From Limisphaerales bacterium (GTDB taxonomy: Bacteria > Verrucomicrobiota > Verrucomicrobiia > Limisphaerales > SXTU01), in contig WRPG01000041.1 in assembly GCA_009773355.1 (NCBI GenBank), forward strand, positions 1 to 64,000: DNA of 64,000 nucleotides. Direction: 5' to 3'. This document shows positions 23,699-60,979 of the stretch, piece after piece; within the stretch, counting starts at the first letter, position 1; each line of letters begins with the position of its first letter. Below the pieces are notes generated by a model. It ran no database searches and was not told where the DNA came from. It saw nothing but the letters and a program-made list of their open reading frames with translations. Both the position numbers and the translations under genes were made by a program.

Positions 23699-25114
23699 AT
23701 GAAGCCGCTGCGTCCCGCCCGCTTTGCGCTCCTTTGCGCCCTCTGCGTCTTTGCGTTGCGTTCGCCCGCCGCGCCGAGGCCGAACGTGCTCCTGCTCATG
23801 TCCGACGACTTGGCGAACACGCTCGGCTGCTACGGCCATCCGCTCGCGAAGACGCCGAACCTCGACGCGTTCGCGAAGCGGGCCATGCTGTTCGAGCGCG
23901 CCTATTGCCAGTTCCCGCATTGCAACCCGTCGCGCGCGTCGCTGCTCTCCGGCCTGCGCCCGCACACCACGCGTGTCACGGACAACGCGGACAACCTCTA
24001 CCAGAACATCCCCGGCGTGATGACGCTGCCGCATCACTTCCGGCGCAACGGCTACGCCACCGCGCGCTGCGGCAAGATTTTCCACCTCGGCGTGCCGACG
24101 GGCACGGAGAGCATGGATGACCCGCAGGCGTGGGACTTCGGCACGCCGTTCAAGGACGAGCGGCCTTACCCGCCGAAGCGCGAGAGCGCCGTGAAGGTCA
24201 CCACTGGCAAGAAGCAGGGACTGCCGTGGACCGAGACCACCGGCACGGACGACGACCTCGTGGACGGGAACTTCGCCAAGACCGCCGTCGAGTGGCTGGA
24301 GAAGCGGGACAAGTCGAAACCCTTCTTCCTCGCGGTCGGCTTCCATCGCCCGCACCTGCCGCTGGTCGCGCCCGCGAAGTATTTTGACCTGTATCCGTTC
24401 GACAGCATCAAGCTGCCCACCGAGCCAGCCGACGACGAGGCGGACATCCCTGCGCCCGCGCGCAACGGCTCCGTGCCCGGCTACACCATCAACACCACGC
24501 CGGAGCAGCGGCGTGCAGCCATCCGCGGCTATCTCGCGACGGTGAGCTTCATGGACGCGCAGGCGGGCCGCGTGCTCGACGCGTTGAAGCGTCTCAGTCT
24601 CGCAGACAACACCATCGTCATCTTCGCCGCCGACCACGGCTGGCATCTCGGCGAGCACGGGCTGTGGCACAAACGCAGCCTTTTCGAGGAAAGCGCGCGC
24701 GTGCCGTTCCTCGTCCATGCGCCCGGCGCGAAGGGCAATGGGCGGCGCACCACCAGCCTCGCCGAGCTGCTCGACATCTACCCCACGCTCTGCGACCTGA
24801 CCGGCGTGCCCGCGCCCGCGAGCTTGCAGGGCAAGTCGCTCCGCCCCGTGCTGAACGACCCGAAGGCGGTGCTGCACGAAGGCGCGTTCACCCAAGCCCG
24901 GCGCGGCGCGAACGCGGAGCACTGGGGCCGCAGCGTCCGCACCGCCCGCTGGCGCTGCACGGAGTGGGACGAGGGCCGGAACGGCATCGAGCTTTACGAC
25001 CACGACGCCGACCCGCGCGAGTTCACCAACCTCGCCAACGACCCAAAGCACGCGGTGGTGCTGAAGGAGCTGCGGACAGTGCTCGCGGCGAAGCTGCCGC
25101 CCATAACGAAATGA
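23699..25114 (+). CDS. Sulfatase, iduronate-2-sulfatase-like
   Basis: The 471-residue type I sulfatase has the maturation motif C75-N-P-S-R79 in FPHCNPSRASLLSG; C75 would become formylglycine. Metal ligands are the SDD pair (35-37), and the ADHGWHLGEHG segment follows the second Asp/His site. The signal peptide core (FALLCALCVFALRS) is encoded by a TTTGCG simple repeat shared with five other sulfatases here. It removes sulfate esters from polysaccharides outside the cell; the subfamily by the KFDLYP-like and WHLGEHG pattern is iduronate-2-sulfatase-like. Its stop overlaps the next sulfatase start (ATGA). Confidence 0.92.
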   Translation: MKPLRPARFALLCALCVFALRSPAAPRPNVLLLMSDDLANTLGCYGHPLAKTPNLDAFAKRAMLFERAYCQFPHCNPSRASLLSGLRPHTTRVTDNADNLYQNIPGVMTLPHHFRRNGYATARCGKIFHLGVPTGTESMDDPQAWDFGTPFKDERPYPPKRESAVKVTTGKKQGLPWTETTGTDDDLVDGNFAKTAVEWLEKRDKSKPFFLAVGFHRPHLPLVAPAKYFDLYPFDSIKLPTEPADDEADIPAPARNGSVPGYTINTTPEQRRAAIRGYLATVSFMDAQAGRVLDALKRLSLADNTIVIFAADHGWHLGEHGLWHKRSLFEESARVPFLVHAPGAKGNGRRTTSLAELLDIYPTLCDLTGVPAPASLQGKSLRPVLNDPKAVLHEGAFTQARRGANAEHWGRSVRTARWRCTEWDEGRNGIELYDHDADPREFTNLANDPKHAVVLKELRTVLAAKLPPITK

Positions 25115-44151: not shown

Positions 44152-44730
44152 TTAAGTCCGGCGCTGCCGCCAGACCTCGACGATGTGGTATGGCCCCGGC
44201 TCACCACGCATGGGCTGGCCGAGCACCTCCAGCGTGGGCGCGAGGGCGAAGGCTTCCTCGGCGGTTTCCAAGAGGAAATAGCGGTTGATCGGGACTTCGG
44301 CAGCGAGCCCGTTGCATGACAATGGAGAGTGTCCAAAAAACGAGTGGTCAAGCTCCCATGACACGACATCGTAGCCAAGCTTCGCAAAGGAACTGTCCAT
44401 GGGGATCGGCTTCACCGTGGGAATGGAATAACTTTGCCGGGAGCCAAGAACGTAACGCACTGGATATGTCCAATAGGCGAACAGATCACACTGCGGATGC
44501 AACTCGGCCTCCATAATGCTCCATGCCAATTCCGGGGTGTCGTAAACCCGCATCCCATTGTCTCGCCAGTCGAAAAGCTCATCAAATCCCTGCGGCACGC
44601 TGCACTGGGCGACGCTGCAAATGGAATCAACACCTGCCGGTTTGGCATTGCGCCATTCTGGGCGCTCTGCCTTGGGCCGAGCGAAGTAGCCAATGAGCGT
44701 CGGCTCCGGGATGTCCGCCGTGGCTTTCAC
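44152..44730 (-). CDS. Hypothetical protein, translationally coupled to a frameshifted sulfatase
   Basis: This 192-residue protein is not recognised. It is aromatic and acidic (FAYWTYPVRYVLGSRQSY, GYDVVSWELDHSFFGHSPLS), with no signal peptide, membrane helix or catalytic motif. Lower GC and unlike codon use suggest transfer. It starts at GTG 44730, overlapping the sulfatase C-terminal stop by GTGA, and ends in the arm of a palindrome. The last residues VEVWRQRRT are basic. Confidence 0.6.
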   Translation of the reverse strand: MKATADIPEPTLIGYFARPKAERPEWRNAKPAGVDSICSVAQCSVPQGFDELFDWRDNGMRVYDTPELAWSIMEAELHPQCDLFAYWTYPVRYVLGSRQSYSIPTVKPIPMDSSFAKLGYDVVSWELDHSFFGHSPLSCNGLAAEVPINRYFLLETAEEAFALAPTLEVLGQPMRGEPGPYHIVEVWRQRRT

Positions 44731-45332
44731 TTGTTCTTCCCGCCCGAGGTGACGAACTCCTCGCGGCTGAGGAACCCGTCTTTGTTCGTGTCGAACTGCG
44801 GGAAGCGGGCGGGGGCCTTGTCGGGGTCGGGCTGGTTGGCGAGGAATTCCTCGCGGGAGAGCTTGCCGTCCTTGTTCTTGTCGCGGGAGTCGAACATGGC
44901 GTTGCGGTCCTGCTTGCCCTTCGCGGGCGCGGCCTTCGCATCAGCCTGCTTGGCAGCGGCGGCGCTGATTTGCGGCTTGGCTTCGGGATGTTTCGCCAGC
45001 AGCGCGCGGAGTCGGGCGATGACTTCGGGCTGCTCGGCGGCGAGGTTCTTGGTTTCCAACGGGTCGGCTTGGTAGTCGTAGAGTTCCAGTTCGGCGGTGG
45101 CGGCCGGCGCGCCCGGCTTCTTCCATTCGACGAGGCGGTGGCGCTCGGTGCGGATGGCGCGGCCCAGCACGCTGCCCTTGTCCGGCGCGCTGCGCGGATA
45201 GACGTGGATGGCGTGGTCGCGGTGCGGCGCGGCGGGGTCGCGCAACGTGGCGGCGAAGCTGCGTCCGTCCAGACCGGCGGGGGCGCAGGCCGGCGAGTTC
45301 CGCGAGCGTGGGATAGATGTCCACGGTCTCAA
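44727..45332 (-). CDS. Frameshifted sulfatase, C-terminal part with two EF-hands
   Basis: This frame continues the sulfatase C-terminal sub-domain. The homologous part begins at about 45290 (PAGLDGRSFAATLRDP) and runs through IRTERHRLVEWKKPG and YDYQADPLETKNLA. It then adds two canonical EF-hand loops, DKNKDGKLSREEF and DTNKDGFLSREEF, and ends GGKNK. EF-hands bind Ca2+ and are an unusual extension for a sulfatase. The N-terminal part is in another frame. Sequence upstream of 45290 in this frame is not protein-like. Whether this is a pseudogene, sequencing error or programmed shift cannot be told from one copy. Confidence 0.8.
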   Translation of the reverse strand: MRPWTSIPRSRNSPACAPAGLDGRSFAATLRDPAAPHRDHAIHVYPRSAPDKGSVLGRAIRTERHRLVEWKKPGAPAATAELELYDYQADPLETKNLAAEQPEVIARLRALLAKHPEAKPQISAAAAKQADAKAAPAKGKQDRNAMFDSRDKNKDGKLSREEFLANQPDPDKAPARFPQFDTNKDGFLSREEFVTSGGKNK

Positions 45333-46407
45333 CGAGCGAGGCAGTCTTCGCGCCAGCCTTCACGCCGGGGCCGGCGACAAGCACGGGGATGCGCGCGGCC
45401 TGCTCGTAATTCGTGTGCTTGCACCAGATGCCGTGGTCGCCGAGGTGCCAGCCGTGGTCACCCCACAGGACGACGATGGTGTTCGCTGCGAGACCGAGCT
45501 TGTCCAGCTCCGCGAGCACGCGGCCCGCCTGCGCGTCCATGTAGCTCGTCGCGGCATAGTAGCCGTGGATGAGCGTGCGCTGGAGGTCGTCGGGCAGCGT
45601 GCCCTTCGCCGGCATGTCCTTGTAGTTGCGCAGCTCGCCGCCGGATTGCGGCGCGTAGCTGGGCGCGCCGACGGGCGGCGTCTGCGGCTGCGCGAGCTTG
45701 AAGGTGTTGCGGTCATACAAATCCCAATACTTCTTCGGCGCGACGAAGGGCAGGTGCGGCTTGAGGAAGCCGACGGCGAGGAAGAACGGCTCGCCGGCTT
45801 TCGCCTTCGCCGCGCGGAGGCGTTCGATGGCCTCGTCGGCAATCATCCCGTCGCCATACTTGTTGTCCGGCACGTCGGCGGATTCGTAAGCCGCGCCGCG
45901 CGGGCCGAGCTTTGTGTCGCGCGCGCCCTCGGTGCTTTCCTTGAGCGCGTAGCCGCCGGCCTTGGACCGCCAGGACGGCACGCTCCACGAGTCCGCGTCG
46001 TCAATGTTCCCGTGGCCGGTGTGGAAAATCTTCCCCAGCCCCTCGGTGCGGTAGCCGTGCCGCTTGAAGAACTGCCCCACCGTCACCGCGCCCGGCGCGC
46101 CTTTGCGGAAGTGCGTGGGCAGGTCGTAGATGCCAAGCGTCTGCGGGCGCAGGCTGGTCATGAGCGAGTTGCGCGAGGGCGAGCAGACGGCCTGGTTGCA
46201 GAAGGCGCGGTTGAACTGCACGGCGCGCGCGGCGAGGCGGTCGAGGTTGGGCGATTTCGCGAGCGCGTCGCCGTAGCAGCCGAGCGCGGGCTTGAGGTCG
46301 TCCACGCAGATGAGGAGGACGTTGGGCCTGGCGGCGGCGAGGGAGTTCAACGCAAAGGCGCAAAGGACGCTGAGGAGTGCAAAGAGGGCGGAACGCAATG
46401 GCTTCAT
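44941..46407 (-). CDS. Frameshifted sulfatase, N-terminal catalytic part
   Basis: The first ~372 residues are a complete sulfatase catalytic core: signal peptide (ALFALLSVLCAFALNS, from the CGCAAAGG repeat), CVDDLKPALGCYGD, C75-S-P-S-R79 in AVCSPSRNSLMTS, WGDHGWHLGDHGIW. It is iduronate-2-sulfatase-like and close to the gene at 48046-49551. At about 45281-45290 the frame changes: the homologous paralogue has two more bases here (CCTGCCCGCGCCCGCC against CCTGCGCCCCCGCC). Downstream, this frame yields an Arg-rich sequence to 44941 that is not real protein. The correct continuation is in the 44727-45332 frame. Confidence 0.85.
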   Translation of the reverse strand: MKPLRSALFALLSVLCAFALNSLAAARPNVLLICVDDLKPALGCYGDALAKSPNLDRLAARAVQFNRAFCNQAVCSPSRNSLMTSLRPQTLGIYDLPTHFRKGAPGAVTVGQFFKRHGYRTEGLGKIFHTGHGNIDDADSWSVPSWRSKAGGYALKESTEGARDTKLGPRGAAYESADVPDNKYGDGMIADEAIERLRAAKAKAGEPFFLAVGFLKPHLPFVAPKKYWDLYDRNTFKLAQPQTPPVGAPSYAPQSGGELRNYKDMPAKGTLPDDLQRTLIHGYYAATSYMDAQAGRVLAELDKLGLAANTIVVLWGDHGWHLGDHGIWCKHTNYEQAARIPVLVAGPGVKAGAKTASLVETVDIYPTLAELAGLRPRRSGRTQLRRHVARPRRAAPRPRHPRLSAQRAGQGQRAGPRHPHRAPPPRRMEEAGRAGRHRRTGTLRLPSRPVGNQEPRRRAARSHRPTPRAAGETSRSQAANQRRRCQAG

Positions 46408-46463
46408 CGGCTCAGACTTTAACCACGGATGGGCACGGGTGAACACGGATTTTGTGACCGGTT

Positions 46464-48045: not shown

Positions 48046-49551
48046 TTACCGCTTCGCTTTGCCAGCAGGTGAGCCGCCGGGCGGCACAGCCTCCGGATGC
48101 CGCGCGAGGATGCCCCGGAGTTGCGCAACCACAGCGGGCTGGGCCGCCGCGAGGTTCTTCGTCTCGCGCGGGTCTGTCTCGTAGTCGTAAAGCTCGAACT
48201 CCGCCGCGTCCGCTGGGGCTCCGGGCTTCTTCCATTCGACCAGCCGGTAACGCTCGGTGCGAATCGCGCGGCCCATGCGCTCGCCGCGCGGGTAGGCGTG
48301 ATACGCGTGGTCGCGGATGCGGCGGGCGGGATCGCGGAGGACGGGCACGAGGCTGAGGCCGTCGCGCGGTTGCGGGCCGGCGGGCGCGGGCAGGCCGGCG
48401 AGTTCGGCGAGCGTGGGGAAAACGTCCACGGTCTCGGCGGGCTGCCGCGTGGCGGAGCCGGGCCGGGTGACGCCGGGAGCGACGATGAGCAGCGGGGTGC
48501 GGTTGGCCTGCTCGTAGTTCGTGTGCTTGGTCCAGTAACCGTGGTCGCCGAGATGCCAGCCGTGGTCGCCCCAGAGGACGATGAGCGTGCTCTGCGCGAG
48601 GCCGAGGCGGTCCAGCTCGTCGAGCACGCGGCCAAGCTGCGCGTCCATGTAGCTCACGCAGGCGTAGTAGGCGTGGATGAGTTCGCGCTGCGTCTTTTCC
48701 TCGAGCAGGTTTTCCACGGAGAGCGGGTCGTAATTCACAATCTCGCCGCCGACCTTGCCCGCGTATTTCGGCGCGCCCTCGGGGTCGCGTTGGTCGGAGG
48801 CGAGGGCGAACTTCGCGGGGTCGTGCAGGTCGAAATACTTTTTTGGCGCGGTGAGGGGCAGGTGCGGCTTCACGAAACCGAGCGCGAGGAAGAACGGCGT
48901 GCCGCGCTCCTTCGCCGCGCGCAGACGCTGGATGCCCTCGTCCGCGATGCGCCCGTCGGCGTAGGCGCTGTCGGGCACATCGGAAATCTCGGTGGCCGCG
49001 CCGCGCGGGAGTTTGCTGATTTCGCCGAGGCGCTGGTTGGTGAAGAATGCTTCCTCGCGCGTGAGCTGGCCATTGGCGGAGTTCCTCGGGTCGAGATACT
49101 CGACGACCTTTTCCTTCACACTCGGCACGGACCACGAGGCGTCGTCGTCGCGGTTGCCGTGGCCGGTGTGGAGGATTTTTCCCACGGCCTCGGCGCGATA
49201 GCCGTGCCGCATGAAGTGCTGCGTCATCGTCACGGCGTCCGGCACGGCGTCGCGGAAGTTCCGGTTCAGGCTGTAAATGCCCAGCGAAGTCGAGCGCGAG
49301 CCGAGCAGCAGGTTGTTCCGCGACGGCGCGCAGACGGACTGGTTGCAAAACGCGAGGTCGAAGCGCATCCCGCGCGCGGCAACGCGGTCAATGTTCGGTG
49401 ACTTGGCGAGCGGGTCGCCATAACAGCCGAGCGCGGGCTTGAGGTCGTCCACGCAGAGCAGGAGGACGTTGGGTTTGGTCGCGGCGAAGAGGTTCAACGC
49501 AAAGACGCAGAGAGCGCAGAGGAGCGCAGAGAAGAACAGGCGAAGCTTCAT
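48046..49551 (-). CDS. Sulfatase, iduronate-2-sulfatase-like
   Basis: The 501-residue sulfatase has C74-A-P-S-R78 in SVCAPSRNNLLLG, metal site CVDDLKPALGCYG, and the second site WGDHGWHLGDHGYW. The signal core (FFSALLCALCVFALNLF) comes from the CGCAAAGACGCAGAG repeat. It is the closest paralogue of the frameshifted sulfatase at 44.7-46.4 kb and shows the intact LAELAGLPAPAG junction there. It is the last gene of a five-gene operon, its start overlapping the 129-aa gene by ATGA. Confidence 0.93.
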   Translation of the reverse strand: MKLRLFFSALLCALCVFALNLFAATKPNVLLLCVDDLKPALGCYGDPLAKSPNIDRVAARGMRFDLAFCNQSVCAPSRNNLLLGSRSTSLGIYSLNRNFRDAVPDAVTMTQHFMRHGYRAEAVGKILHTGHGNRDDDASWSVPSVKEKVVEYLDPRNSANGQLTREEAFFTNQRLGEISKLPRGAATEISDVPDSAYADGRIADEGIQRLRAAKERGTPFFLALGFVKPHLPLTAPKKYFDLHDPAKFALASDQRDPEGAPKYAGKVGGEIVNYDPLSVENLLEEKTQRELIHAYYACVSYMDAQLGRVLDELDRLGLAQSTLIVLWGDHGWHLGDHGYWTKHTNYEQANRTPLLIVAPGVTRPGSATRQPAETVDVFPTLAELAGLPAPAGPQPRDGLSLVPVLRDPARRIRDHAYHAYPRGERMGRAIRTERYRLVEWKKPGAPADAAEFELYDYETDPRETKNLAAAQPAVVAQLRGILARHPEAVPPGGSPAGKAKR

Positions 49552-49937
49552 GCTTGAAACGGTGGGTAAACCGTCACGGCGATCGTCGCCCTGAGTGCCG
49601 TGACGCGGGCCAAGGTTGCGGGTGAAATCTTGAGCGCGAGGGCTGGCTGCGTGTTGCCCGAAGCGATTCCGATGTCGAAAGTTCTTCGGCTGGCTTCGCT
49701 CCAAAGCCTAGCCACATTGGGCGGCATTGCCTCGAGCAGGTCGCAGAAGCGCGCGAGCAGTTGCTCCGGCGTCCGACGCGTGGTGACCAACTCCAACGCG
49801 GTTAGGAACTCCGCTCCCTGGCGGCCGCAGTAGAGCACGCTCACTTTCCTGTTCCCAAAGGACTTCACAAATCCGGTGAGGTCAGTTTTTGAATGCACTT
49901 CCAAATCCACGTTCAGAAACTGTGGTGGCGCGCTCAT
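49548..49937 (-). CDS. Uncharacterised 129-aa protein, copy 2 of a pair between sulfatases
   Basis: This protein is not recognised. It is soluble, has no signal and shares roughly three quarters of its residues by eye with the 131-aa gene at 51388-51783 (for example APPQFLNVDLEV, RKVSVLYC, RRTPEQLLARFCDLLEAMPP, RTFDIGI, LARVTAL). The alternating pattern suggests an alpha/beta fold. ATGA overlaps at both ends couple it to the sulfatases before and after, although it should stay in the cytosol while they are exported. Confidence 0.75.
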   Translation of the reverse strand: MSAPPQFLNVDLEVHSKTDLTGFVKSFGNRKVSVLYCGRQGAEFLTALELVTTRRTPEQLLARFCDLLEAMPPNVARLWSEASRRTFDIGIASGNTQPALALKISPATLARVTALRATIAVTVYPPFQA

Positions 49938-51391
49938 TGGGCTTTCTGTTTGGCCTTCTTCTTGCCATCGGCTTTCGGTGCGGGGGCTTGTGCGCCGAGC
50001 GCGGGGCCGTTGTCCGGCGGCATGGACTGGTGCCAGGCGAGCAGCGATTTGGTGAGGCGCGCGACGGTGTCCGGCTGCTGCGCGACGAGGTTCTTAGTCT
50101 CCGCGCGGTCGGTGGCGAGGTTGTAGAGCTGCGGCTGGGAGCCGTCGTAGTCGCAGAGGAGTTTCCAATCGCCTTCGCGCATGGCGAGGTCGGGCAGGCG
50201 GTCAGGCAGGTTTGGGCCGGCGGTTTTGCGGTCGGGCGGACGACGCCAGAAAATCGGCGCGGCGCGGGAGCTGGTGCTCTTGCCCAGTAGCACCGGCGAG
50301 AGGTTCTCGCCGTCGAAGGCCACATCGGCGGGCTTGGCAACTCCGGCGATGGACAGCAGCGACGGCGCGAGGTCGAAGGCCGCGAAGACGGAAGCTTCGT
50401 TGTGCGTGCCGGCTTTGCCCTTCTCGATGAGGCCCGGCCCCCATGCGATGAGTGGCGAGCGTGTGCCGCCTTCGTAAAGCGTCGTCTTCGTGCCGCGGAA
50501 CGGGCCCGCGCTGCCCGCGCCCGGCTCGGGGCCGTTGTCGGAGCAGACGAGGATGAGCGTGTTGTCGCGCAGCGCGGGCGTGGCGCGGACGTGGTCGAAG
50601 AGCTTGCCGAGCTGGCGGTCCATCGCTTCCAGCACGGCGAGGTAGAGGCCGCGCTTGCCTTCGCGCCACTGGTCCACGGGCGGCCAAAACGGACTGTGGA
50701 CGTCGTCGGGCCAGAGGTTCACGTAGAACGGTTTCCCGGCGGTGGCGGCGCGGTTCATGAAGGGAATCGCCGCGTCCACGAAGCCGCTGGTGATTTGCGA
50801 GCGCTGCATCCAGGTGACGAGCTTGCCGAGCCGCTCGGCGTCGGCCCAGATGCGGCCGGGCTGGGTGTCGCCGGGCTTGAGCGTGAGTGGCAGGAGCTTC
50901 GCGCCCATGCCCTCGAAGTTCGTGAGCGACTCGTCGAAGCCGTAATCTGAAATCGGCGGTGCGTCGTCCACGTCGCGCTGGCCGCCGAGGTGCCACTTGC
51001 CGAAATGACCGGTGGCGTAGCCGCTCTGCTGGAGCAGGCGCGCGAGCGTGGGGGCCTTCGGATCAAGCCACTGCGCGACGCCGCGACGCTCGTTGTCCGC
51101 GCGGTTGTTGAGGAACGACGTGATGCGCCAGCGGTGCGGATATTGCCCGGTCACGAGCGCGCACCGCGACGGCGAGCAGATGGGCGCGTTGACGTAGAAC
51201 TGCGAGAAGCGGAGGCCCTCGGCGGCGAGGCGGTCCACATTGGGCGTCTTCGCGTCCTTGTTCCCGAAGCATGAGAAATCGCCCCAGCCCATGTCGTCAA
51301 TGAACACGAGGATGATGTTGGGGCGCGGGGCGGCGTTGGATTGGCCACAAAGAACGCAAAGGAGCGCAAAGAGGGCGACGGCCGGTTTCAT
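49934..51391 (-). CDS. Sulfatase (arylsulfatase A-like)
   Basis: The 485-residue sulfatase has C72-S-P-S-R76 in PICSPSRCALVTG, metal site FIDDMGWGDFSCFG (30-43), KWHLGGQRDVDD and CSDNGPEPGAG. The signal peptide core (VALFALLCVLCGQSNA) derives in part from the ACGCAAAGGAGCGCAAAG repeat. The subfamily differs from the sulfatases on both sides (one iduronate-type). The Lys-rich tail (KADGKKKAKQKAQ) recurs in this window. ATGA overlaps join it to the 131-aa gene (upstream) and the 129-aa gene (downstream). Confidence 0.93.
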   Translation of the reverse strand: MKPAVALFALLCVLCGQSNAAPRPNIILVFIDDMGWGDFSCFGNKDAKTPNVDRLAAEGLRFSQFYVNAPICSPSRCALVTGQYPHRWRITSFLNNRADNERRGVAQWLDPKAPTLARLLQQSGYATGHFGKWHLGGQRDVDDAPPISDYGFDESLTNFEGMGAKLLPLTLKPGDTQPGRIWADAERLGKLVTWMQRSQITSGFVDAAIPFMNRAATAGKPFYVNLWPDDVHSPFWPPVDQWREGKRGLYLAVLEAMDRQLGKLFDHVRATPALRDNTLILVCSDNGPEPGAGSAGPFRGTKTTLYEGGTRSPLIAWGPGLIEKGKAGTHNEASVFAAFDLAPSLLSIAGVAKPADVAFDGENLSPVLLGKSTSSRAAPIFWRRPPDRKTAGPNLPDRLPDLAMREGDWKLLCDYDGSQPQLYNLATDRAETKNLVAQQPDTVARLTKSLLAWHQSMPPDNGPALGAQAPAPKADGKKKAKQKAQ

Positions 51392-51783
51392 AATTTGGAC
51401 GGATAGACGGTAATGGCGATGGTTGCGCCAAGTGCCGTAACTCTCGCCAATGTCTTGGGCGAAATGCGCAACGCGAGGTGTGGCTGCGCGTCGCCAGATT
51501 GGATGCCGATGTCGAACGTTCGCTGATTCGCCGCTCGCCAAAGGTTCGCCGCGCTGGGCGGCATCGCTTCGAGCAGGTCGCAGAAGCGCGCGAGCAGTTG
51601 CTCCGGTGTTCGGCGCATTGTGACCAACTCCAGAGCGGCGAAGAACGCCGCTCCCTGGCGGTCACAGTAGAGCACGCTCACTTTCCTGGTTCCGAAGGAT
51701 TTCGCAAATTCGGCGAGGTCAGCTTTTGAAAGCACTTCCAAATCCACGTTCAGAAACTGTGGTGGCGCGGGTTCTGGCTTCAT
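51388..51783 (-). CDS. Uncharacterised 131-aa protein, copy 1 of a pair between sulfatases
   Basis: This is the paralogue of the gene at 49548-49937, with a four-residue longer start (MKPEPAPPQFLNVDLEV). The conserved block RRTPEQLLARFCDLLEAMPP is the longest identical stretch. Features are the same: no signal, no membrane segment, no known motif; two Cys (YC and FC) are conserved in both copies. Overlaps of four bases at each end fix the start at ATG 51783. Its position within a sulfatase operon is the only hint of function. Confidence 0.75.
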   Translation of the reverse strand: MKPEPAPPQFLNVDLEVLSKADLAEFAKSFGTRKVSVLYCDRQGAAFFAALELVTMRRTPEQLLARFCDLLEAMPPSAANLWRAANQRTFDIGIQSGDAQPHLALRISPKTLARVTALGATIAITVYPSKL

Positions 51784-53249
51784 TGCTTCTTGGCCTTGGC
51801 TTTTCCCTGCTTGGGCTGGTCACCGATTTCGGCCTTGGGGCCGTAGCTGTTCGGGTCGCTCAAGCGGCGCGGCTCGGCGAAGTGCTTTTGCTGGTCGCCC
51901 TGGGATTTCATCCATGCGTCGAGGTCGGCGCGGAGGGCGGTGAGCTTCGCGACGTGCTGCGGGTCGGCGGCGAGGTTGCGCTGCTCGGCGGGGTCGGTGG
52001 CGAGGTCGTAGAGTTCCTCGGCGGGGCGGGCGTGGTAGCGCTTGAGGAGGGCGGCGGCCTGCGGGTCGGTCTGCGCGGCGGTTTCCCACGTGGAGAAGAA
52101 GGCGCGCTGGCCGAGGCGGCCGGCGACGAGGTCAATGTGCGTGGTGAACGCGAACTCGGGGTGCAGGTTGCGGATGTATTTCCAGCGGTCGTCGCGCACG
52201 GCGCGGGCGGGATAGACATTGAAACGGTTGTCGTTGGCGTGCGTGGTGAAGATGCGGTCGCGGTGCTGGCTGGCCTGCCCGCGCAGCACGGGGAGGAAGG
52301 AGCGGCCGTCAATGTTCGCGGGTGCCTTGCCACCGGCGGCTTCGAGCAGCGTGGGCAGGAGGTCCACCCATTGCACCATCGCGTCGGTGCGGACGCCGGG
52401 TTTTACCACGCCAGGCCACGCGACGATGAGCGGCACGGCCACGCCGGACTCGTAGAGGTTCCACTTGCCGAACGGCCACTGCGCGCCGTGGTCGGCGGTG
52501 AAGAGCAGGAGCGTCTCGTGCGGCAAAGTTGCCTTCACCGCATCGAGCACAAGGCCAAGGTCGGTGTCGGCTTTGGTGACGGCGGCGGCGTATTTCGCGC
52601 GCCAGACGCGGGTGGCGGGGGTGTCAATGCTGCCGGCGGGCAGCGGGAGTTTCGCGGGGTCGTAGCCGGAGGTTTCCTCCGGCCACGGGACGTGCGGCCA
52701 GTTGCTGCCAATCATCAGACAGAGCGGCCTGGCGCCGGTGCGCGGGCGGGACTTCAGCCACGCGACGGCGTTGGTGATGGCCGCGTGCTCGTGGAAAGTG
52801 TCATTCGCGAAATGGTCGAAGCCGTAGTCCGCCGTGTGCCGGTAGTGCGAGACCTTGCCGAACGCGACGACTTCGTAGCCCAGCGCCTTGAGATACGCCG
52901 GCCATTTCTTCAGCTCGGCGCGCGGCTTGGAGTGGTTCGCCTCCGCGCCGTTGCGGGCGGGCATCAGGCCGGTGAGCAGGGCCGCGCGGCTGGGCGCGCA
53001 GCTTGGCGAGGCGACGTAGGCGCGCGTGAAGGTCATCCCCGCGTCCGCGAGCCGTTGCATGTTCGGCGTGCGGATGCCTTGGCCACCGTAGGGCGTGGAG
53101 TCGAGCTGCCCCTGATCGTCGGTGAGGAAGACGACGAAGTCGGGGCGCGCGGCGGCGAAGCCATTCAACGCAAAGGCGCAGAGGGCGCAGAGGAGCGCGG
53201 AGAAAACAGCCAAGCGGATGGCTGTTGGGCTGGACGGGGCAATTGTCAT
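51780..53249 (-). CDS. Sulfatase (heparan-N-sulfatase or arylsulfatase type)
   Basis: The 489-residue sulfatase has C84-A-P-S-R88 in SPSCAPSRAALLTG, metal site LTDDQGQLDSTPYGG and FTADHGAQWPFGKWNLYE. WPHVPWPEE and the DWRKY-like RDDRWKYIRN segment point to the sulfamidase-like group. The signal core (LAVFSALLCALCAFALNGF) is encoded by the CGCAAAGGCGCAGAG repeat. ATG 53249 is chosen; the frame extends to 53396 but without protein-like sequence. It is the first gene of the five-gene operon; its stop overlaps the 131-aa gene. Confidence 0.92.
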   Translation of the reverse strand: MTIAPSSPTAIRLAVFSALLCALCAFALNGFAAARPDFVVFLTDDQGQLDSTPYGGQGIRTPNMQRLADAGMTFTRAYVASPSCAPSRAALLTGLMPARNGAEANHSKPRAELKKWPAYLKALGYEVVAFGKVSHYRHTADYGFDHFANDTFHEHAAITNAVAWLKSRPRTGARPLCLMIGSNWPHVPWPEETSGYDPAKLPLPAGSIDTPATRVWRAKYAAAVTKADTDLGLVLDAVKATLPHETLLLFTADHGAQWPFGKWNLYESGVAVPLIVAWPGVVKPGVRTDAMVQWVDLLPTLLEAAGGKAPANIDGRSFLPVLRGQASQHRDRIFTTHANDNRFNVYPARAVRDDRWKYIRNLHPEFAFTTHIDLVAGRLGQRAFFSTWETAAQTDPQAAALLKRYHARPAEELYDLATDPAEQRNLAADPQHVAKLTALRADLDAWMKSQGDQQKHFAEPRRLSDPNSYGPKAEIGDQPKQGKAKAKKQ

Positions 53250-53459: not shown

Positions 53460-54932
53460 CTAATTCTTCCCCAGGTCATTATCCCGCACGGCACGGAGCT
53501 TGACGGCGAGCTTGGCCTTGAACTCCGCCACCACGCCCGCGAACTCAGGCTTTCCGGCGAGGTTGGTGTATTGCTTCGGGTCTTTGACCATGTCGAACAG
53601 CTCCACGCCGAGCGAGGCGTCCTCGGCGTATTGGAGGTATGCCCACTTGTCCTCGCGCAGCAGGAAACCCTTGCTGGACGGCGCGACGCTGAAGGCGGCT
53701 TCGCGCACGGAATGCTTCGGATCGTCGAGCAAGCGGGAGATGTTCTTGCCCTGGAGGCGCGCGGGCACTTCGAGGCCGCACAGGCTCGCGACGGTCGGAT
53801 ACAGGTCGAGCAGCTCGACGAGCGAATGGCACACGGCGGGTTTCTTCCCCGGCACCTTGATGATGAGCGGGACCATCGCGGACTCGTCGCGGAGGCTGAC
53901 CTTGGCCCAGAAGTCGTGCTCGCCGAGATGATAGCCGTGGTCGCTGGTGAAGATGACGATGGTGTTGTCCGCCTGGCCGGACTGCTCCAGCGCGGCGAGC
54001 ACCTTGCCCACCTGCGCGTCCATGTAGCGGACCGCGGCGTAGTAACCGCCGACGGCCTTGCGCTGGCGGCGCTCGTCCATCTTCATGTTGAGGCTGGTCT
54101 TGTAGTTGATGCCGGCCTTGGGGATGTCGTCCCAGTCGCCGGGAATCTTCGGTGGCAGGGGCAGCTTGTCGTAGGGTTTGAACGGCGCGTGGTAATTCGC
54201 CGGTGCGACGAACGGCACATGCGGACGCACAAAACCGACCGCGAGGAAGAACGGCTTGCCCGCATGCTGCTGAATCAACTCGATGGCCTTCGTCGCCGTT
54301 TTGCCATCCGAGTGAACCGAGTCGTCGCCCTCGGCCTCGACCACGACGAACGTGTTTCCGCCCACGACGGGGCGCTTGCCGTCGGGATTGCCTTCGAGCG
54401 TCTCGCCGACGCCCTTGGCCTTCCACTCGGGGCCGGGGCTGTTGAACTTCTCCGTCCACGACGCCGGGTCGTCCGCGCCGTCGCCGTGGTTCGTCTTCTC
54501 CGGGTCGCCGCCCTCCTCGATGCCGCCAGGCACGCCCATGTGGTAGATCTTGCTGACGCGCGCGGTGTAATACCCGTTGTTCTTGAAATGCTGCGTCCAC
54601 GTCGCGCGCTCGCCGATGGCCGGGCGCGGGCTGGTGTAGCCGAGCACGCCCGTCGCGTGTGGGTAGTAGCCCGACATGAACGACGCCCGCGACGGCCCGC
54701 AATAAGTCCCCTGGCACAACGCCCGCGTGAACCGCGTGCCCTGCGCCGCGAGCCGGTCAATGTTCGGCGTCTTGCAGAGGGTGTTGCCGTAGCAGGAGAG
54801 CGCGGTGGCGGTCAGGTCATCGGAGATGATGAAGAGGACGTTGGGTTTGGCGGCGGCGAAGGAACTCAACGCAAAGACGCAGAGGACGCCAAGAAGCGCA
54901 GAGCAGAAGGCCAAGGCCCGGACGGATTTCAT
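53460..54932 (-). CDS. Sulfatase, iduronate-2-sulfatase-like
   Basis: The 490-residue sulfatase has C78-G-P-S-R82 in QGTYCGPSRASFMSG, metal site ISDDLTATALSCYG and TSDHGYHLGEHDFW. VGFVRPHVPFVAP and the choline-sulfatase/iduronate-type RDNDLGKN end are visible. The signal core (FCSALLGVLCVFALSSF) is from the CGCAAAGACGCAGAGG repeat. Residues about 135-190 are an insertion rich in Gly/Asp (EEGGDPEKTNHGDGADDP). The start is ATG 54932. It is separated by 210 bases from the next operon. Confidence 0.92.
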   Translation of the reverse strand: MKSVRALAFCSALLGVLCVFALSSFAAAKPNVLFIISDDLTATALSCYGNTLCKTPNIDRLAAQGTRFTRALCQGTYCGPSRASFMSGYYPHATGVLGYTSPRPAIGERATWTQHFKNNGYYTARVSKIYHMGVPGGIEEGGDPEKTNHGDGADDPASWTEKFNSPGPEWKAKGVGETLEGNPDGKRPVVGGNTFVVVEAEGDDSVHSDGKTATKAIELIQQHAGKPFFLAVGFVRPHVPFVAPANYHAPFKPYDKLPLPPKIPGDWDDIPKAGINYKTSLNMKMDERRQRKAVGGYYAAVRYMDAQVGKVLAALEQSGQADNTIVIFTSDHGYHLGEHDFWAKVSLRDESAMVPLIIKVPGKKPAVCHSLVELLDLYPTVASLCGLEVPARLQGKNISRLLDDPKHSVREAAFSVAPSSKGFLLREDKWAYLQYAEDASLGVELFDMVKDPKQYTNLAGKPEFAGVVAEFKAKLAVKLRAVRDNDLGKN

Positions 54933-55655: not shown

Positions 55656-57017
55656 ATGACTCGCCCCAAGCAGGTCGGTTTTCGGAATCATCCCACCTAC
55701 ACGGTCGCAGAACTTTTCTGCGGCTGCGGTGGATTCTCGCGCGGCTTTGAGCTGGCGCGGCGGTTTCGCGTCGTCTTCGGTAACGACGTAAAAGAATTCG
55801 CGCTCCGCACCTTCGAGTTCAACCACACGCACGATGGCACGGCTCCGGTCGTTTTACGGCAGGACATTCGCACGGTTCCTGATGGCGACATCGCTCGCCT
55901 GCTCGAATCAAAAGGCGTTTCCAGTCTCGACTGCCTGATTGGCGGTCCACCCTGCCAGGGATTCTCCCAGATGCGCCGGAGCGAGGCACGACGCGGCTCC
56001 AAAATCGTCGGTTTCGGTGGCTACAACAAGTTGGACCAAGACGCTCGCAACGACCTCGTCCTCCGCTTCCTGGAGGTGGTCGCCGCACTGAAGCCGAAGG
56101 TCGTCGTGATTGAGAACGTCCCCCAGTTTCTGAGTCATTTCCATGACGGCAAGCGGGGGGGCATCGCGCAGCAGGTTGAAGAGGTGCTTCAGGAGCTGGG
56201 ATATCAAGTGGCGTGCGGCATCCTGAACGCCGCTGACTTCGGCGTGCCACAGTTGCGCCTTCGTGCGGTTATCATCGCATCCCGACTCGGTGCGATTGCC
56301 CTGCCGGTCCCCACTCATGGCGAACCGGACGAGCTGAGTGGCTGGAAAGGTAAGCCGTGGGTCACGGTGCGGGAGGCCATTGAAGATTTGCCTCCCGACC
56401 CGCCGCTGCATGAGCCGCTCGGCAACAGTGAAGCGAGTCAGTTTGTCAAACCGGCGGGGAACCCGTTTACGAAACAGATGCGCCGCTCAGGTTCGTTCCC
56501 GCTGAACCACGTCACTCGCCGATACAAACCACGCATCCTCGAAATCATTGCGCAGATGCGCCCCGGCGAGACATGGGACGAGGCGAGCGAACGGATGCGC
56601 AAGCGGTTCGCCGTCCTCATCGAAAAGGCGGTCACAAAAGGCGAAAGCGAAGCCCAAGCACGACGCCGACTGGAAGCTGAGGGGACAATCCAGCGAGTCT
56701 TTTACAAGCGGTATTACTGGAGCGCCTACACTCGGCTGGATTGGAGCCGGCCGGCCTTGACGATTACGGCAAACGCAAACTTTCTTGGCTCCGGACGGTT
56801 CACTCACCCGGAGTTAAATCGCGGCATCACGATGAGGGAAGCTGCACGCCTACAGTCTTTCGACGACGCGTTCACTTTCGTGACATCTGCCAGCGAGAAG
56901 CGGCTCACCGAGAATATCGGCGTTGGGATGGACATGATTGGCGAAGCCGTCCCGCCACTCCTCGCCAAGGCACTCGCCGACACCATCGCCGTCCACCTCG
57001 ACAAGCACAGGAGGTAA
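55656..57017 (+). CDS. DNA (cytosine-5-)-methyltransferase
   Basis: The 453-residue enzyme has all C5-methyltransferase motifs in order: I (AELFCGCGGFSRGF, 18-31), IV with the catalytic Cys100 (GGPPCQGFS), VI (ENVP, 153-156), VIII (QLRLRAVIIA), a long variable target-recognition region (about 205-380), IX (TMREAARLQSF) and X (GEAVPPLLAKALA). It would methylate cytosine in an unknown site. Its last two codons (AGG AGG) and stop (TAA) form the ribosome-binding site of the next gene. The three-gene set resembles a restriction-modification cassette of the LlaJI/McrBC-like sort. ATG 55656 is the first usable start. Confidence 0.93.
   Translation: MTRPKQVGFRNHPTYTVAELFCGCGGFSRGFELARRFRVVFGNDVKEFALRTFEFNHTHDGTAPVVLRQDIRTVPDGDIARLLESKGVSSLDCLIGGPPCQGFSQMRRSEARRGSKIVGFGGYNKLDQDARNDLVLRFLEVVAALKPKVVVIENVPQFLSHFHDGKRGGIAQQVEEVLQELGYQVACGILNAADFGVPQLRLRAVIIASRLGAIALPVPTHGEPDELSGWKGKPWVTVREAIEDLPPDPPLHEPLGNSEASQFVKPAGNPFTKQMRRSGSFPLNHVTRRYKPRILEIIAQMRPGETWDEASERMRKRFAVLIEKAVTKGESEAQARRRLEAEGTIQRVFYKRYYWSAYTRLDWSRPALTITANANFLGSGRFTHPELNRGITMREAARLQSFDDAFTFVTSASEKRLTENIGVGMDMIGEAVPPLLAKALADTIAVHLDKHRR
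57009..57015 (+). promoter_or_regulatory. Strong ribosome-binding site made from the methyltransferase end
   Basis: AGGAGGT at 57009-57015 is a near-perfect anti-16S match, six bases before ATG 57022. It is formed by the last two Arg codons (AGG AGG) of the methyltransferase plus the first base of its stop, so translation of the ATPase is coupled tightly to it. Confidence 0.85.
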
Positions 57018-57021
57018 AACT

Positions 57022-58527
57022 ATGAGCAACGCATCCACCATCGCCCTTGAAGCGCTCAAGAAGCTGCGTGAAAAGGAAGGGCCGACCGCCATGTTCCCGG
57101 CCGACAAGGTCTGGCTGTTTGCCTCCGAGAAACCAGACAGTGCCTACCGCCCAGGAGCCATCAATTGGCTGCGCACCAATGGCTACATTGAACAGACCGG
57201 ACGGATGGCGAACGCCGTGACCGAGGCGAGAGCAGGTAGTAAAACCCCCGAATACCGCTTCGGCCCACGGTTCAATAACGGCAATGCTAAGAATCGGGGA
57301 ACAAGCGGTCAGAGTATTGCATCCGTCGTGGATGCGTTCGCGCTTGCTTGCGATGGCCAACTTCAGACCTCTCGAACATTGCTGCTTCGGTTCGTGGCTT
57401 CGTTGCTCGCCAAACGCTTCGTCATCCTCACCGGACTTTCCGGCTCCGGCAAAACGAAGCTCGCGCAGGCGTTCGCCCGTTGGATTACGCCGGCCAGCCC
57501 GGAGTGCTTCGCTGTCGTCCCGGTAGGGGCGGACTGGACGAGCAACGAGCACATTCTCGGCTATCCCGACAACTTGAACGGCGGCTATGTCCAGCAGACG
57601 GCGCTCAAGCTCATCTTGCAGGCTGTGAAGCATCCGGACCTCCCGCATTTCCTCATCTTGGACGAGATGAACCTGTCCCACGTCGAGCGCTACTTCGCCG
57701 ACCTGCTCTCGCTCATCGAGTCAAACGAGAAAATTTGGCTCCACCACGACGACGAGGCCAAGCGCGGCATCCCCGCCCAGCTCGCGCTGCCGGAGAACCT
57801 GTTCGTCATCGGCACGGTGAACGTGGACGAGACGACCTACATGTTTTCACCCAAAGTGCTCGACCGGGCCAACGTGCTGGAGTTCCGCGTGTCGGAGTCC
57901 GACATGGTGGAGTTTCTCGACCACCCGGTTGCGCCAGACCTTGCCAAGCTCGCCGAGCCGGGAACGAACGGCGCAGCCTTTGGGAAGGGGTTCGTCGTCG
58001 CCGCCTCACAGCAGCACGACGCGGCTCTCAGCGAGGAGCAGCGGGCGCAGTTGAAGGCGGAACTGATGCTGTTTTTCAACGCGCTGGGCGAACACAACGC
58101 GGAGTTCGGATTCCGGGTGGGGAAGGAGATTGCGCGTTTCGTGCATTTTCACGAGGCGTTGTCGGGCGGTTCGCTCGACTTCCGCGCCGCGATGGACGCT
58201 CAGATTGTGCAGAAGCTGCTGCCCAAGCTCCACGGCTCGCGGAACAAGATGACCGGTCTGCTGTGGACGTTGACAGCCTTGTGTCAGGAGAACCACGCGT
58301 GGAAAGCCGAGCCGGATGAAACGAAGCGGGCCGAGGCGTTCCAGAAGTTCATGAAGGAGGTTCACGCCGCTGTTGAGGCCGGTGATGAGAAATTTGACCC
58401 GGGGCAGGTGGCGGCCAAGCTGCGCGCCGCTGGCAAGGAAGCCCACTACCCATTGAGCTTCGACAAGCTCGCCCGGATGTGGCGCGTCCTGGAGGCGAAC
58501 GGTTTCGTGAGCTTCGCGGAGGCATGA
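57022..58527 (+). CDS. McrB-like AAA+ NTPase
   Basis: The 501-residue protein has an N-terminal winged-helix-like segment (residues 5-85, ALEALKKLREKEGPTAMFP). Next comes an AAA core: Walker A GLSGSGKTKL (138-147), Walker B FLILDEMNLSHVERYF (210-225), sensor GTVNVDETTYMFSPKVLDRANV (264-285, split). The McrB signature MNxxDR is replaced by VNVDETT. This AAA_5-like group usually precedes a DUF2357 nuclease, as here. It probably loads or translocates the nuclease on DNA by NTP hydrolysis. The gene is one base from the next. Confidence 0.9.
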   Translation: MSNASTIALEALKKLREKEGPTAMFPADKVWLFASEKPDSAYRPGAINWLRTNGYIEQTGRMANAVTEARAGSKTPEYRFGPRFNNGNAKNRGTSGQSIASVVDAFALACDGQLQTSRTLLLRFVASLLAKRFVILTGLSGSGKTKLAQAFARWITPASPECFAVVPVGADWTSNEHILGYPDNLNGGYVQQTALKLILQAVKHPDLPHFLILDEMNLSHVERYFADLLSLIESNEKIWLHHDDEAKRGIPAQLALPENLFVIGTVNVDETTYMFSPKVLDRANVLEFRVSESDMVEFLDHPVAPDLAKLAEPGTNGAAFGKGFVVAASQQHDAALSEEQRAQLKAELMLFFNALGEHNAEFGFRVGKEIARFVHFHEALSGGSLDFRAAMDAQIVQKLLPKLHGSRNKMTGLLWTLTALCQENHAWKAEPDETKRAEAFQKFMKEVHAAVEAGDEKFDPGQVAAKLRAAGKEAHYPLSFDKLARMWRVLEANGFVSFAEA

Positions 58528-58528
58528 T

Positions 58529-60979
58529 ATGCCGGGACTCACTCCCAGGCCCGATGAGACGGTTGAGTGCCGGTCGTCCGATGGGCGACTGGTCGCACTC
58601 GTTGAACTCGTGCCTGAGGATGACTGGCAGGCAGCCGTTGCTGAACTCGCACCGTTGGTCCGGCTCAGTAGCCAAGAAGCCAAGGCGCAAGGAGAGCAGC
58701 CGGTTCAACTGCGCGAGAATGGCCGCTACGAATACGTGGTGCGCCCGGTGTCCGCCGCCCAGGGACAGGGTTTAAAACTGGTGGGCAATCTGGTCAGGAG
58801 CCGGAAGCGGCGCGAATCTGACCGAGACATTGGGCGCATCGAAACCGGCTCCCACTGCGGCCTGCTTCGGCTCGACATTGAGGAGGAAGGCCGTCCCGGC
58901 GAGCGCATTGCCACGGGATATGTGGAAGTTCGTTCCATCAAGGTGGGCTATCGCGACGAGTATCAGCGGATGCTGGAGTTCATTTCTGCGCAATCCAGCC
59001 AATTGCTTTTCGACGCCCGCGCCTCCGCACAGATGCCCGTTGCCCCGAAGTGGACTCGCGAGGCACCGCTGCTTCAGCAGCAAATTGAATTTCTCCGAGA
59101 AACACTCGCCTCCCGTAGCTTTGATGCCTCACTGCGGCGCATTGAGTCCTTCCCGCACCAGCAATTGCGGACGGTTACGGAGCAGCGGAGCGTCTCGCGC
59201 CCGTTTCGGCCCGGCCAGAACTTCAACCGGCAAGTCTCCAGCGGCGGGCATCGCGTGGCGCTGCTGAGTTCGCACCCACTTGCCGTGCGGTTGGCTGGCG
59301 GCGTGAGCCAGCCCAGCCTCCCCGCCCGCGCCATCGTCCAGCGCAAGCGCGACGTCACGGACACGTCTGAAAACCGGTTCGTGAAACATGCGGTGACACA
59401 GTTCCGCGATTTTCTCGTCCACGCCGCACAGGTGCTCGGGCACGAACTGGACGAAAGCTGGGTGCCGGTGCGCAACAGCGCCAAGAGCATGGCGACAAAG
59501 CTTGATGAGGTTCTGTCGCGCAGCTTTTACCGGGAGATTTCACCCCTGCGAATGTTGCCTCTCGGCAGCCCGGTTTTGCAGCGCAAGCCCGGCTATCGGG
59601 AGTTGCTGCAACTTTGGCAGCGGTTCAACGACAATTCGCAGGTGACCTGGAAGGGCGGCGAAGAGGTTTACCATGCGGGCAAGCGGGATGTGGCGACGCT
59701 CTACGAATACTGGCTGTTCTTCCAACTGCTCCGCTGGTTCTGCGGCAAGTTCAACCCCAATGGCGGTGTGCCGGCGTCGAAGCAACTCATTGAGCCGGCA
59801 AGCAAGGGGCGCTTCAACCTGCGGCTGCAACGCAACTGGACGCTCGGGCCGTTTGAAGGAGTTTACACGCGCAACCAGCGCAAGCTGTGCGCAAGATTCC
59901 ACTACAACCAGCGGTTCACCTTCATTGCCGGGCGTAACCAGGCGGGGAGTTGGACGCGTGCGATGCACCCGGACTACACGCTCACCTTTTGGCCCGCCGA
60001 CTACACGCCGGAGGAAGCCGAGCGGCAGGAACTCGCCGTCCACATCCACTTTGATTCCAAATACCGCGTGGAATCGCTTGAGGACTTGTTTGGCAAATCA
60101 TCGGAGGATGCAGATGCCGAGGAGCCGGCAGCGCGTGGAAAGGGGAATTACAAGCGTGCGGACTTGCTCAAGATGCACGCTTACCGCGATGCGATTCGCC
60201 GCTCAGAGGGAGCTTACATTCTTTATCCAGGCAGCGATGCCGACCGAAAAGGCCAAGAACAGCGGGCGAGTGAATTCCGGGGCTTCCATGAAATCCTGCC
60301 GGGGTTGGGCGCGTTCGCCATCTCGCCGGGGCCGGATGGAAAGCCCAAAGGCATGGAACACCTGAACCGGTTCCTCGATGAAGTGCTAGAACACCTGAGC
60401 AACCGCACGACGAGCCGCGAGCGCGTCAGCTATCACTTGCAGGAGGCGTATGGAGCGGAGGCGCTGGCGGAAGCTCCAGTGGAATACAAAATCAAAACGC
60501 CACTACCCGAACGGGACGCCGAGACGGGCGAGCGGTTGGTCCCACCGTCCGAGCATTCGGTGTTGGTTGGCTGGTATGAGAACGCGGACGTCCAACATCT
60601 GGAGTGGATACGCAGCAGTGGCTTCTACAACTTCCGTGCCGGTGACCGCAGTGGTTCCATCCGCATTGAGCCACGCATCGCGGGAGCGAAACACCTGTTG
60701 CTTCACACGCACGGAGGACAAGCGCACCCAGGCCTGTGGCGCATCAAACGCAGCGGCCCCCGGCTGTTCACCGCCGAGGAGTTGCTTCGGCTTGGCTATC
60801 CGCCAGCACTCAACCCAAAGGCCGATGCCATCTATGCGGTTTATGACGTGGAGCCGGACGATGCTTACGTGGGGTGGAAGTGGGATTACGCCAGCCTTCG
60901 CGGTAAGAAGGAGGGCCGACAGAGCGCGCAGCCATTCGCAGTGAGCCTCGCCGATGTGCTCGCGGTTCACCGAATCTGA
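58529..60979 (+). CDS. DUF2357 nuclease, PD-(D/E)xK type (McrC-like)
   Basis: The 816-residue protein has a beta-rich N-terminal part (about 1-290) matching DUF2357. A PD-(D/E)xK-like nuclease follows with D482 in HPDYTLTFWP, then VHIHFDSKYRVES (D509, K511). The next helix, KRADLLKMHAYRDAIRRSEG, is usual in McrC-like/PDDEXK_7 enzymes. A distinctive C-terminal domain (about 640-816) ends in a DVEPDDAYVGWKWDYASLRG segment. It is the predicted cutting subunit that works with the AAA protein, likely sparing DNA methylated by the partner methyltransferase. Confidence 0.88.
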   Translation: MPGLTPRPDETVECRSSDGRLVALVELVPEDDWQAAVAELAPLVRLSSQEAKAQGEQPVQLRENGRYEYVVRPVSAAQGQGLKLVGNLVRSRKRRESDRDIGRIETGSHCGLLRLDIEEEGRPGERIATGYVEVRSIKVGYRDEYQRMLEFISAQSSQLLFDARASAQMPVAPKWTREAPLLQQQIEFLRETLASRSFDASLRRIESFPHQQLRTVTEQRSVSRPFRPGQNFNRQVSSGGHRVALLSSHPLAVRLAGGVSQPSLPARAIVQRKRDVTDTSENRFVKHAVTQFRDFLVHAAQVLGHELDESWVPVRNSAKSMATKLDEVLSRSFYREISPLRMLPLGSPVLQRKPGYRELLQLWQRFNDNSQVTWKGGEEVYHAGKRDVATLYEYWLFFQLLRWFCGKFNPNGGVPASKQLIEPASKGRFNLRLQRNWTLGPFEGVYTRNQRKLCARFHYNQRFTFIAGRNQAGSWTRAMHPDYTLTFWPADYTPEEAERQELAVHIHFDSKYRVESLEDLFGKSSEDADAEEPAARGKGNYKRADLLKMHAYRDAIRRSEGAYILYPGSDADRKGQEQRASEFRGFHEILPGLGAFAISPGPDGKPKGMEHLNRFLDEVLEHLSNRTTSRERVSYHLQEAYGAEALAEAPVEYKIKTPLPERDAETGERLVPPSEHSVLVGWYENADVQHLEWIRSSGFYNFRAGDRSGSIRIEPRIAGAKHLLLHTHGGQAHPGLWRIKRSGPRLFTAEELLRLGYPPALNPKADAIYAVYDVEPDDAYVGWKWDYASLRGKKEGRQSAQPFAVSLADVLAVHRI

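What the first reader, a model, noticed from the sequence alone, without database searches (positions are those of the whole stretch)
48046..53249. Five-gene operon alternating secreted sulfatases with a duplicated small protein
Seen: sulfatase, 131-aa protein, sulfatase, 129-aa protein, sulfatase, all on the minus strand, with every one of the four junctions an ATGA 4-base overlap. The two small proteins are roughly three quarters identical, yet the sulfatases beside them belong to different subfamilies, so the block did not arise by simple tandem duplication. The small protein has no export signal. Inference: either it is needed in fixed ratio with the sulfatases (maturation, chaperone or holding factor before export), or it is a selfish gene that inserts at stop/start junctions without harming coupling.
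Basis: partly seen in the sequence, partly recalled or inferred. Interest (0 to 1): 0.75.

Follow-up and report, generated by a model that had tools for sequence, protein, structure and literature searches.

The report
Patchy accessory gene inside sulfatase operon
A small non-secreted protein from a patchily distributed family sits twice between secreted sulfatase genes here, but close relatives run the same sulfatases end to end without it, so it looks like an inserted passenger or local recruit and not a required sulfatase helper.

Summary
In detail: sulfatase A, 131-aa protein, sulfatase B, 129-aa protein, sulfatase C, minus strand, four ATGA overlaps. The small proteins are 77% identical, the sulfatases about 28-33%. 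Both small genes have low third-position GC (0.67, 0.71; window median 0.88) but are under purifying selection.

The helper inference is not supported. The genome has about 68 sulfatases and only these two small genes. The family is sporadic (20 of 320 genomes of the order). Only this species and one congener have it beside sulfatases; elsewhere its neighbours include rhamnose genes, a PIN toxin, a MarR regulator and ThiF. Two congeners and one more distant relative join orthologous sulfatase A directly to the next sulfatase by ATGA, and none of the three has the small gene anywhere. In the sister species the second junction holds an unrelated gene.

So the small gene most likely entered an existing ATGA junction and was duplicated with recombination between copies. 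Profile comparison links it remotely to DUF4279, a domain reported in immunity proteins; an orphan immunity-like role is my best functional guess, weakly held.

In passing: signal peptides of these sulfatases are encoded by one arm of a dispersed palindromic repeat.

The parts
51780..53249 (-). sulfatase A, PF00884, CAPSR motif, first gene of the operon
   Evidence: orthologues at 82-87% in G001, G006, G002, G012
51388..51783 (-). small protein copy 1, 131 aa, no export signal, remote DUF4279 relative
49934..51391 (-). sulfatase B, PF00884, CSPSR motif
   Evidence: orthologue at 86-87% in G001 only within the genus, others below 50%
49548..49937 (-). small protein copy 2, 129 aa; the same junction in sister species G001 holds an unrelated 364-aa gene
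48046..49551 (-). sulfatase C, PF00884, CAPSR motif, last gene of the operon
   Evidence: 89-91% in G001, 62% homologue directly after sulfatase A in G006 and G002
51780..51783 (-). ATGA overlap sulfatase A / small1; the same position is an ATGA overlap sulfatase A / sulfatase in G006, G002 and G012 (empty site)
51388..51391 (-). ATGA overlap small1 / sulfatase B
49934..49937 (-). ATGA overlap sulfatase B / small2
49548..49551 (-). ATGA overlap small2 / sulfatase C

Best explanation
The small genes are accessory cargo and not sulfatase partners. A gene of a patchy, horizontally moving family of about 130-aa cytosolic proteins entered a sulfatase operon whose genes were already joined by ATGA overlaps, in the lineage of the window species and its congener G001. 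It kept the overlap on its upstream side and made a new one downstream, so it is expressed by translational coupling to the sulfatases. It is now present twice in this species, with signs of recombination between copies. Shown: the arrangement, the empty ATGA site in relatives, the patchy distribution, the unrelated contexts, the low GC3, purifying selection, and a remote profile match to DUF4279. Inferred: direction of change (insertion and not loss), transfer between species, and function. Best functional guess: an orphan immunity-like protein that binds and neutralises an incoming toxin, because DUF4279 has been reported in immunity proteins of polymorphic toxins. No toxin is seen beside it here.
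For: Empty site: in G006 and G002 (same genus) sulfatase A (84-87%) runs by an AAATGA overlap straight into a sulfatase C homologue (62%), and in G012 by CAATGA into a sulfatase B-like gene, with no small gene; no family member anywhere in those genomes. Own genome: two copies only, both here, against about 68 sulfatases, 11 in this window. Distribution: 20 of 320 genomes of the order, 3 of 388 sampled across the phylum besides the window's own. Contexts away from sulfatases: periplasmic sugar-binding protein, RhaM, FGGY kinase, PIN toxin, MarR regulator, rubrerythrin, phosphosulfolactate phosphatase, ThiF. GC3 0.67, 0.71 and 0.64 (G001) against 0.84-0.89 for the flanking sulfatases; dS 0.66-1.03 between small genes against 0.43-0.46 for the sulfatases; dN/dS about 0.15-0.27. 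Mosaic: copies 1 and 2 share most changes in the 5' half, copy 2 and G001 in the 3' half, change-point p = 0.001. DUF4279: hhalign probability 91.7% over 86 columns, against at most 0.8% for 60 column shuffles and 0.4% reversed. DUF4279 as immunity domain: PMC13304343.
Against: The gene has been kept beside sulfatases in two species over considerable divergence and evolves under constraint, which fits a local benefit too. Only two genomes carry this arrangement, so insertion is inferred from parsimony; loss in G006, G002 and G012 is not excluded. Lower GC3 and higher dS could reflect weak codon bias in a short, lowly expressed gene and not foreign origin. No polymorphic toxin lies in the neighbourhood, no member passes the Pfam cut-off for DUF4279 (best 14.4 against 25 bits), and the predicted structure was unusable (mean pLDDT 42.9).
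Confidence: 0.6

Rival explanations
1. The small protein is a dedicated cytosolic helper of these sulfatases (maturation, chaperone or pre-export holding factor) and is coupled to them to keep a fixed ratio.
For: Tight translational coupling at four junctions, one copy per neighbouring pair, retention beside sulfatases in G001, purifying selection.
Against: Orthologous sulfatases A and homologues of C run without it in G006 and G002, B-like without it in G012, and those genomes have no copy at all. About 66 other sulfatases in the genome have none. Homologues lie elsewhere in other genomes. In G001 an unrelated gene takes the second slot.
Confidence: 0.1
2. A selfish mobile ORF whose ends are ATG(A) and (A)TGA and which inserts into ATGA overlaps, regenerating the overlap on both sides.
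For: Exact insertion at an ATGA that is an overlap without insert in three relatives; two copies at two such junctions; G179 has ATGA on the upstream side, G317 on the downstream side.
Against: Most of the other family members are free-standing or separated by gaps, without overlaps. In G001 the upstream side is an 11-bp gap. ATGA overlaps are the commonest tight junction in the clade, so selection for coupling after insertion suffices. No recombinase or end structure is known.
Confidence: 0.1
3. A lineage-specific recruit: foreign in origin, but now doing a job tied to this polysaccharide-degradation operon (for example sensing or regulation), as also suggested by members beside rhamnose genes in other genomes.
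For: Retained and constrained in two species; members in the f7 family genomes lie between a sugar-binding protein and rhaM, and one precedes an FGGY kinase.
Against: Other members sit beside unrelated genes; the three rhamnose-side cases in family f7 are related genomes, so they may be a single event; no sensor or DNA-binding domain was found.
Confidence: 0.2

Closest known systems
DUF4279 (Pfam PF14106), reported as immunity domain in polymorphic toxin systems
   Same: Profile match over the C-terminal two thirds, similar length, cytosolic, sporadic distribution
   Different: No member passes the Pfam cut-off; N-terminal part (FLNVDLEI..) not aligned; no toxin gene beside the window copies
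Type I sulfatases (PF00884) in multi-gene clusters of PVC bacteria
   Same: Cys-type CxPSR motif, signal peptides, clusters of unlike sulfatases, large repertoire (about 68 in this genome; high sulfatase numbers in the PVC group are described in PMC6388578, abstract seen)
   Different: Alternation with a cytosolic accessory gene
Immunity-gene arrays with recombination between non-identical paralogues (T7SS immunity genes, PMC9484751)
   Same: Two non-identical neighbouring copies with a mosaic pattern
   Different: Copies are separated by sulfatases, and no cognate toxin is known; resemblance only, from the abstract

Membership tests
DUF4279 (PF14106) | score at or above the Pfam gathering cut-off (25 bits) | tested here: not met
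   best 14.4 bits, E 0.047, one of 21 members
DUF4279 (PF14106) | profile-profile similarity above controls | tested here: met
   91.7% over 86 columns; shuffles at most 0.8%, reversed 0.4%; the DUF4279 profile was built from 8 members in this order
DUF4279 (PF14106) | same three-dimensional fold | tested here: inconclusive
   AlphaFold model of mean pLDDT 42.9 from a 3-sequence alignment
immunity protein of a polymorphic toxin | gene directly after a toxin gene | tested here: not met
   upstream genes are sulfatases; among other members only a PIN toxin beside the G173 copy
immunity protein of a polymorphic toxin | neutralises a toxin | not testable with these tools
   needs an experiment
sulfatase maturation or helper protein | co-occurrence with sulfatases across genomes | tested here: not met
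type I sulfatase (large genes) | PF00884 and CxPSR/CxAxR-type active-site motif | tested here: met
integron gene cassette (some homologues) | attC site and array | tested here: inconclusive
   attC-like hairpins near the G075 and G165 genes, but counts close to shuffled controls and no array; none in window or G001

The most novel reading that the evidence does not exclude
The small gene is a minimal mobile ORF that spreads by entering ATGA stop/start overlaps, restoring a coupled junction on both sides, and so hides inside operons at no cost to its neighbours.
Probability: 0.07. Interest if true: 0.75.

Novelty: new member of a known kind. Interest (0 to 1): 0.35.

Why it matters
It is a clear before-and-after case of an accessory gene entering a translationally coupled operon: the uninterrupted ATGA junction survives in three relatives. 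It warns against reading tight coupling as proof of functional partnership. It also names a patchy small-protein family, remotely related to DUF4279, that is not in Pfam, NCBIfam, PHROGs or PADLOC. The passing observation, one arm of a dispersed palindromic repeat serving as the signal-peptide core of secreted enzymes, may deserve more attention than the finding itself.

Tried and rejected
Simple tandem duplication of a sulfatase plus small gene: rejected, the sulfatases are only about 28-33% identical. Phage origin: no match in phage records or PHROGs, and a viral-contig scan with one member found nothing. Plasmid link: a single distant hit on a Spirosoma plasmid. Anti-phage defence family: no PADLOC hit. 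Known structure: no significant PDB sequence match. Integron cassettes: looked likely from GTTAGGC/GCCTAAC motifs beside some homologues, but the attC scan was inconclusive. Single-crossover delivery of [small + sulfatase B] into [A - small - C] would explain the alternation, but the mosaic pattern (3' half of copy 2, not copy 1, matches G001) does not fit it simply; left open.

Full report
Observation. The five-gene block is exactly as described. Reading the minus strand: sulfatase A (53249-51780), small1 (51783-51388), sulfatase B (51391-49934), small2 (49937-49548), sulfatase C (49551-48046), with ATGA at each of four junctions. The large proteins are Pfam Sulfatase members with CAPSR or CSPSR motifs and hydrophobic leaders, about 28-33% identical to each other. 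The small proteins are 76.6% identical and have no hydrophobic leader. ATGA overlaps are common in this clade: 5 of 13 tight same-strand junctions called in the window and 13 of 46 in fetched relatives.

Distribution of the small protein. The window genome (6.16 Mb in 162 contigs, 95% complete) has two copies, both here, against about 68 sulfatases, 11 of them in this window. A profile of nine members finds the family in 20 of 320 genomes of the order and in three others among 388 sampled across the phylum. There is one copy per genome in most. One distant homologue lies on a Spirosoma plasmid. None was found in phage records. The distribution is sporadic: of eleven genomes in the genus only G000 and G001 have it.

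Context of homologues. Only G000 and G001 have the gene beside sulfatases. Elsewhere the neighbours include a periplasmic sugar-binding protein and rhaM (G103, G279; G283 has the sugar-binding protein and ThiF), an FGGY kinase (G317), a PIN toxin (G173), a MarR-type regulator (G114), rubrerythrin (G257) and phosphosulfolactate phosphatase (G231).

Empty sites. Sulfatase A has close orthologues. In G006 and G002, same genus, it runs by an AAATGA overlap directly into a sulfatase 62% identical to C. In G012, another family, it runs by CAATGA directly into a sulfatase B-like gene (45%). None of these genomes has a family member. So the ATGA junction after sulfatase A exists without the small gene, and the small gene occupies that junction in G000. 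In G001 the order is A, 11-bp gap, small, ATGA, B, 9-bp gap, 364-aa gene with an HExxH motif, ATGA, C. The second slot thus holds different genes in the two species. Insertion is the more economical reading; loss is not formally excluded.

Evolution of the copies. Sulfatases A, B and C differ between G000 and G001 by dS 0.43-0.46; the small genes differ by dS 0.66 (copy 1 to copy 2), 0.71 (copy 2 to G001) and 1.03 (copy 1 to G001), with wide bootstrap ranges. dN/dS is about 0.15-0.27, so the genes are constrained. GC3 is 0.64-0.71 against 0.84-0.89 for the flanking sulfatases and a window median of 0.88. Shared changes group copies 1 and 2 in the 5' half, and copy 2 with G001 in the 3' half (change-point p = 0.001), which points to recombination or gene conversion. 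A protein tree pairs copies 1 and 2 with weak support, 0.75.

What the protein may be. No member passes a Pfam cut-off; the only repeated lead is DUF4279 at E 0.047. A profile of 21 members against a profile of eight DUF4279 proteins from the same order gives 91.7% probability over 86 columns; 60 column-shuffled controls reach at most 0.8% and the reversed profile 0.4%. DUF4279 has been reported in immunity proteins of polymorphic toxins (PMC13304343). This makes an orphan immunity-like protein the best guess, but there is no toxin beside the window copies, and the structure model failed. I hold the functional guess at about 0.35 and the statement that this is accessory cargo and not a dedicated sulfatase partner at about 0.85; 0.6 is for the composite statement.

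Mechanism in plain terms. Shown: an overlap junction without insert in relatives, and the same junction with the small gene here. Inferred: a gene arrived by recombination, and selection kept or restored overlaps on both sides so that ribosomes finishing a sulfatase restart on the small gene and then on the next sulfatase. Not shown: how the second copy was made. Recombination between the copies could move the sulfatase between them, which may explain the alternation.

In passing. Five matches to a 29-base motif lie in the window, none expected by chance, and all five lie in leaders of sulfatases, including A and C. Ten occur in the genome and 43 in seven of eleven genomes of the genus. Of the 32 copies I could inspect, nine are single arms 10-19 codons after an ATG in long ORFs and encode a signal-peptide core such as ALLCALCVFALN; none of these nine has an opposite arm nearby. 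Most of the others are arms of palindromic elements of 89-129 bp. One of the nine is not a sulfatase (L102). A dispersed repeat arm therefore seems to have been used as signal-peptide sequence. I searched the literature only briefly and found nothing on it.

Verdict. The anatomy is real and tidy. The helper reading fails on comparative evidence, and the insertion half of the second reading is supported. Interest is modest.

Noticed in passing
window 49493-49521 (-), 53164-53192 (-), 54865-54893 (-), 46346-46374 (-), 23732-23760 (+): Dispersed repeat CTCTGCGNYYTCTGCGTCTTTGCGTTGAA encodes the signal-peptide core of five sulfatases. Elsewhere in the genus it mostly occurs as two opposite arms of an 89-129 bp palindrome; the nine single-arm copies seen all lie in leaders of secreted enzymes, one of them not a sulfatase.
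   Followed up: partly
L010 5851-6945 (G001, between sulfatases B and C): 364-aa protein with HExxH motif (LMLHEAGHILGLC), no Pfam match, occupies the junction that holds small2 in the window genome.
   Followed up: partly
window 44727-46446 (-): A further sulfatase reads in two overlapping frames (44941-46446 and 44727-45332) while its G001 and G003 orthologues are single 560-aa frames: a frameshift or sequencing error. The second frame ends in EF-hand-like motifs.
   Followed up: partly
window 44152-44730 (-): 192-aa protein without a hydrophobic leader or Pfam match, ATGA-coupled to the sulfatase frame above, also so placed in G003 (L097 1704-2282): another cytosolic gene tied to a sulfatase by 4-base overlap.
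   Followed up: partly
window 55656-60979 (+): C-5 cytosine methyltransferase, AAA ATPase (PADLOC PDC-M26A hit) and DUF2357 + PDDEXK_7 protein in a row: a McrBC-like restriction or defence locus next to the operon.
   Followed up: partly
window 23699-54950: Eleven sulfatases in 64 kb, about 68 in the genome.
   Followed up: partly
L049 3148-3222, L048 5621-5681: attC-like hairpins near small-gene homologues in G165 and G075, at about chance level; possible integron cassettes.
   Followed up: partly
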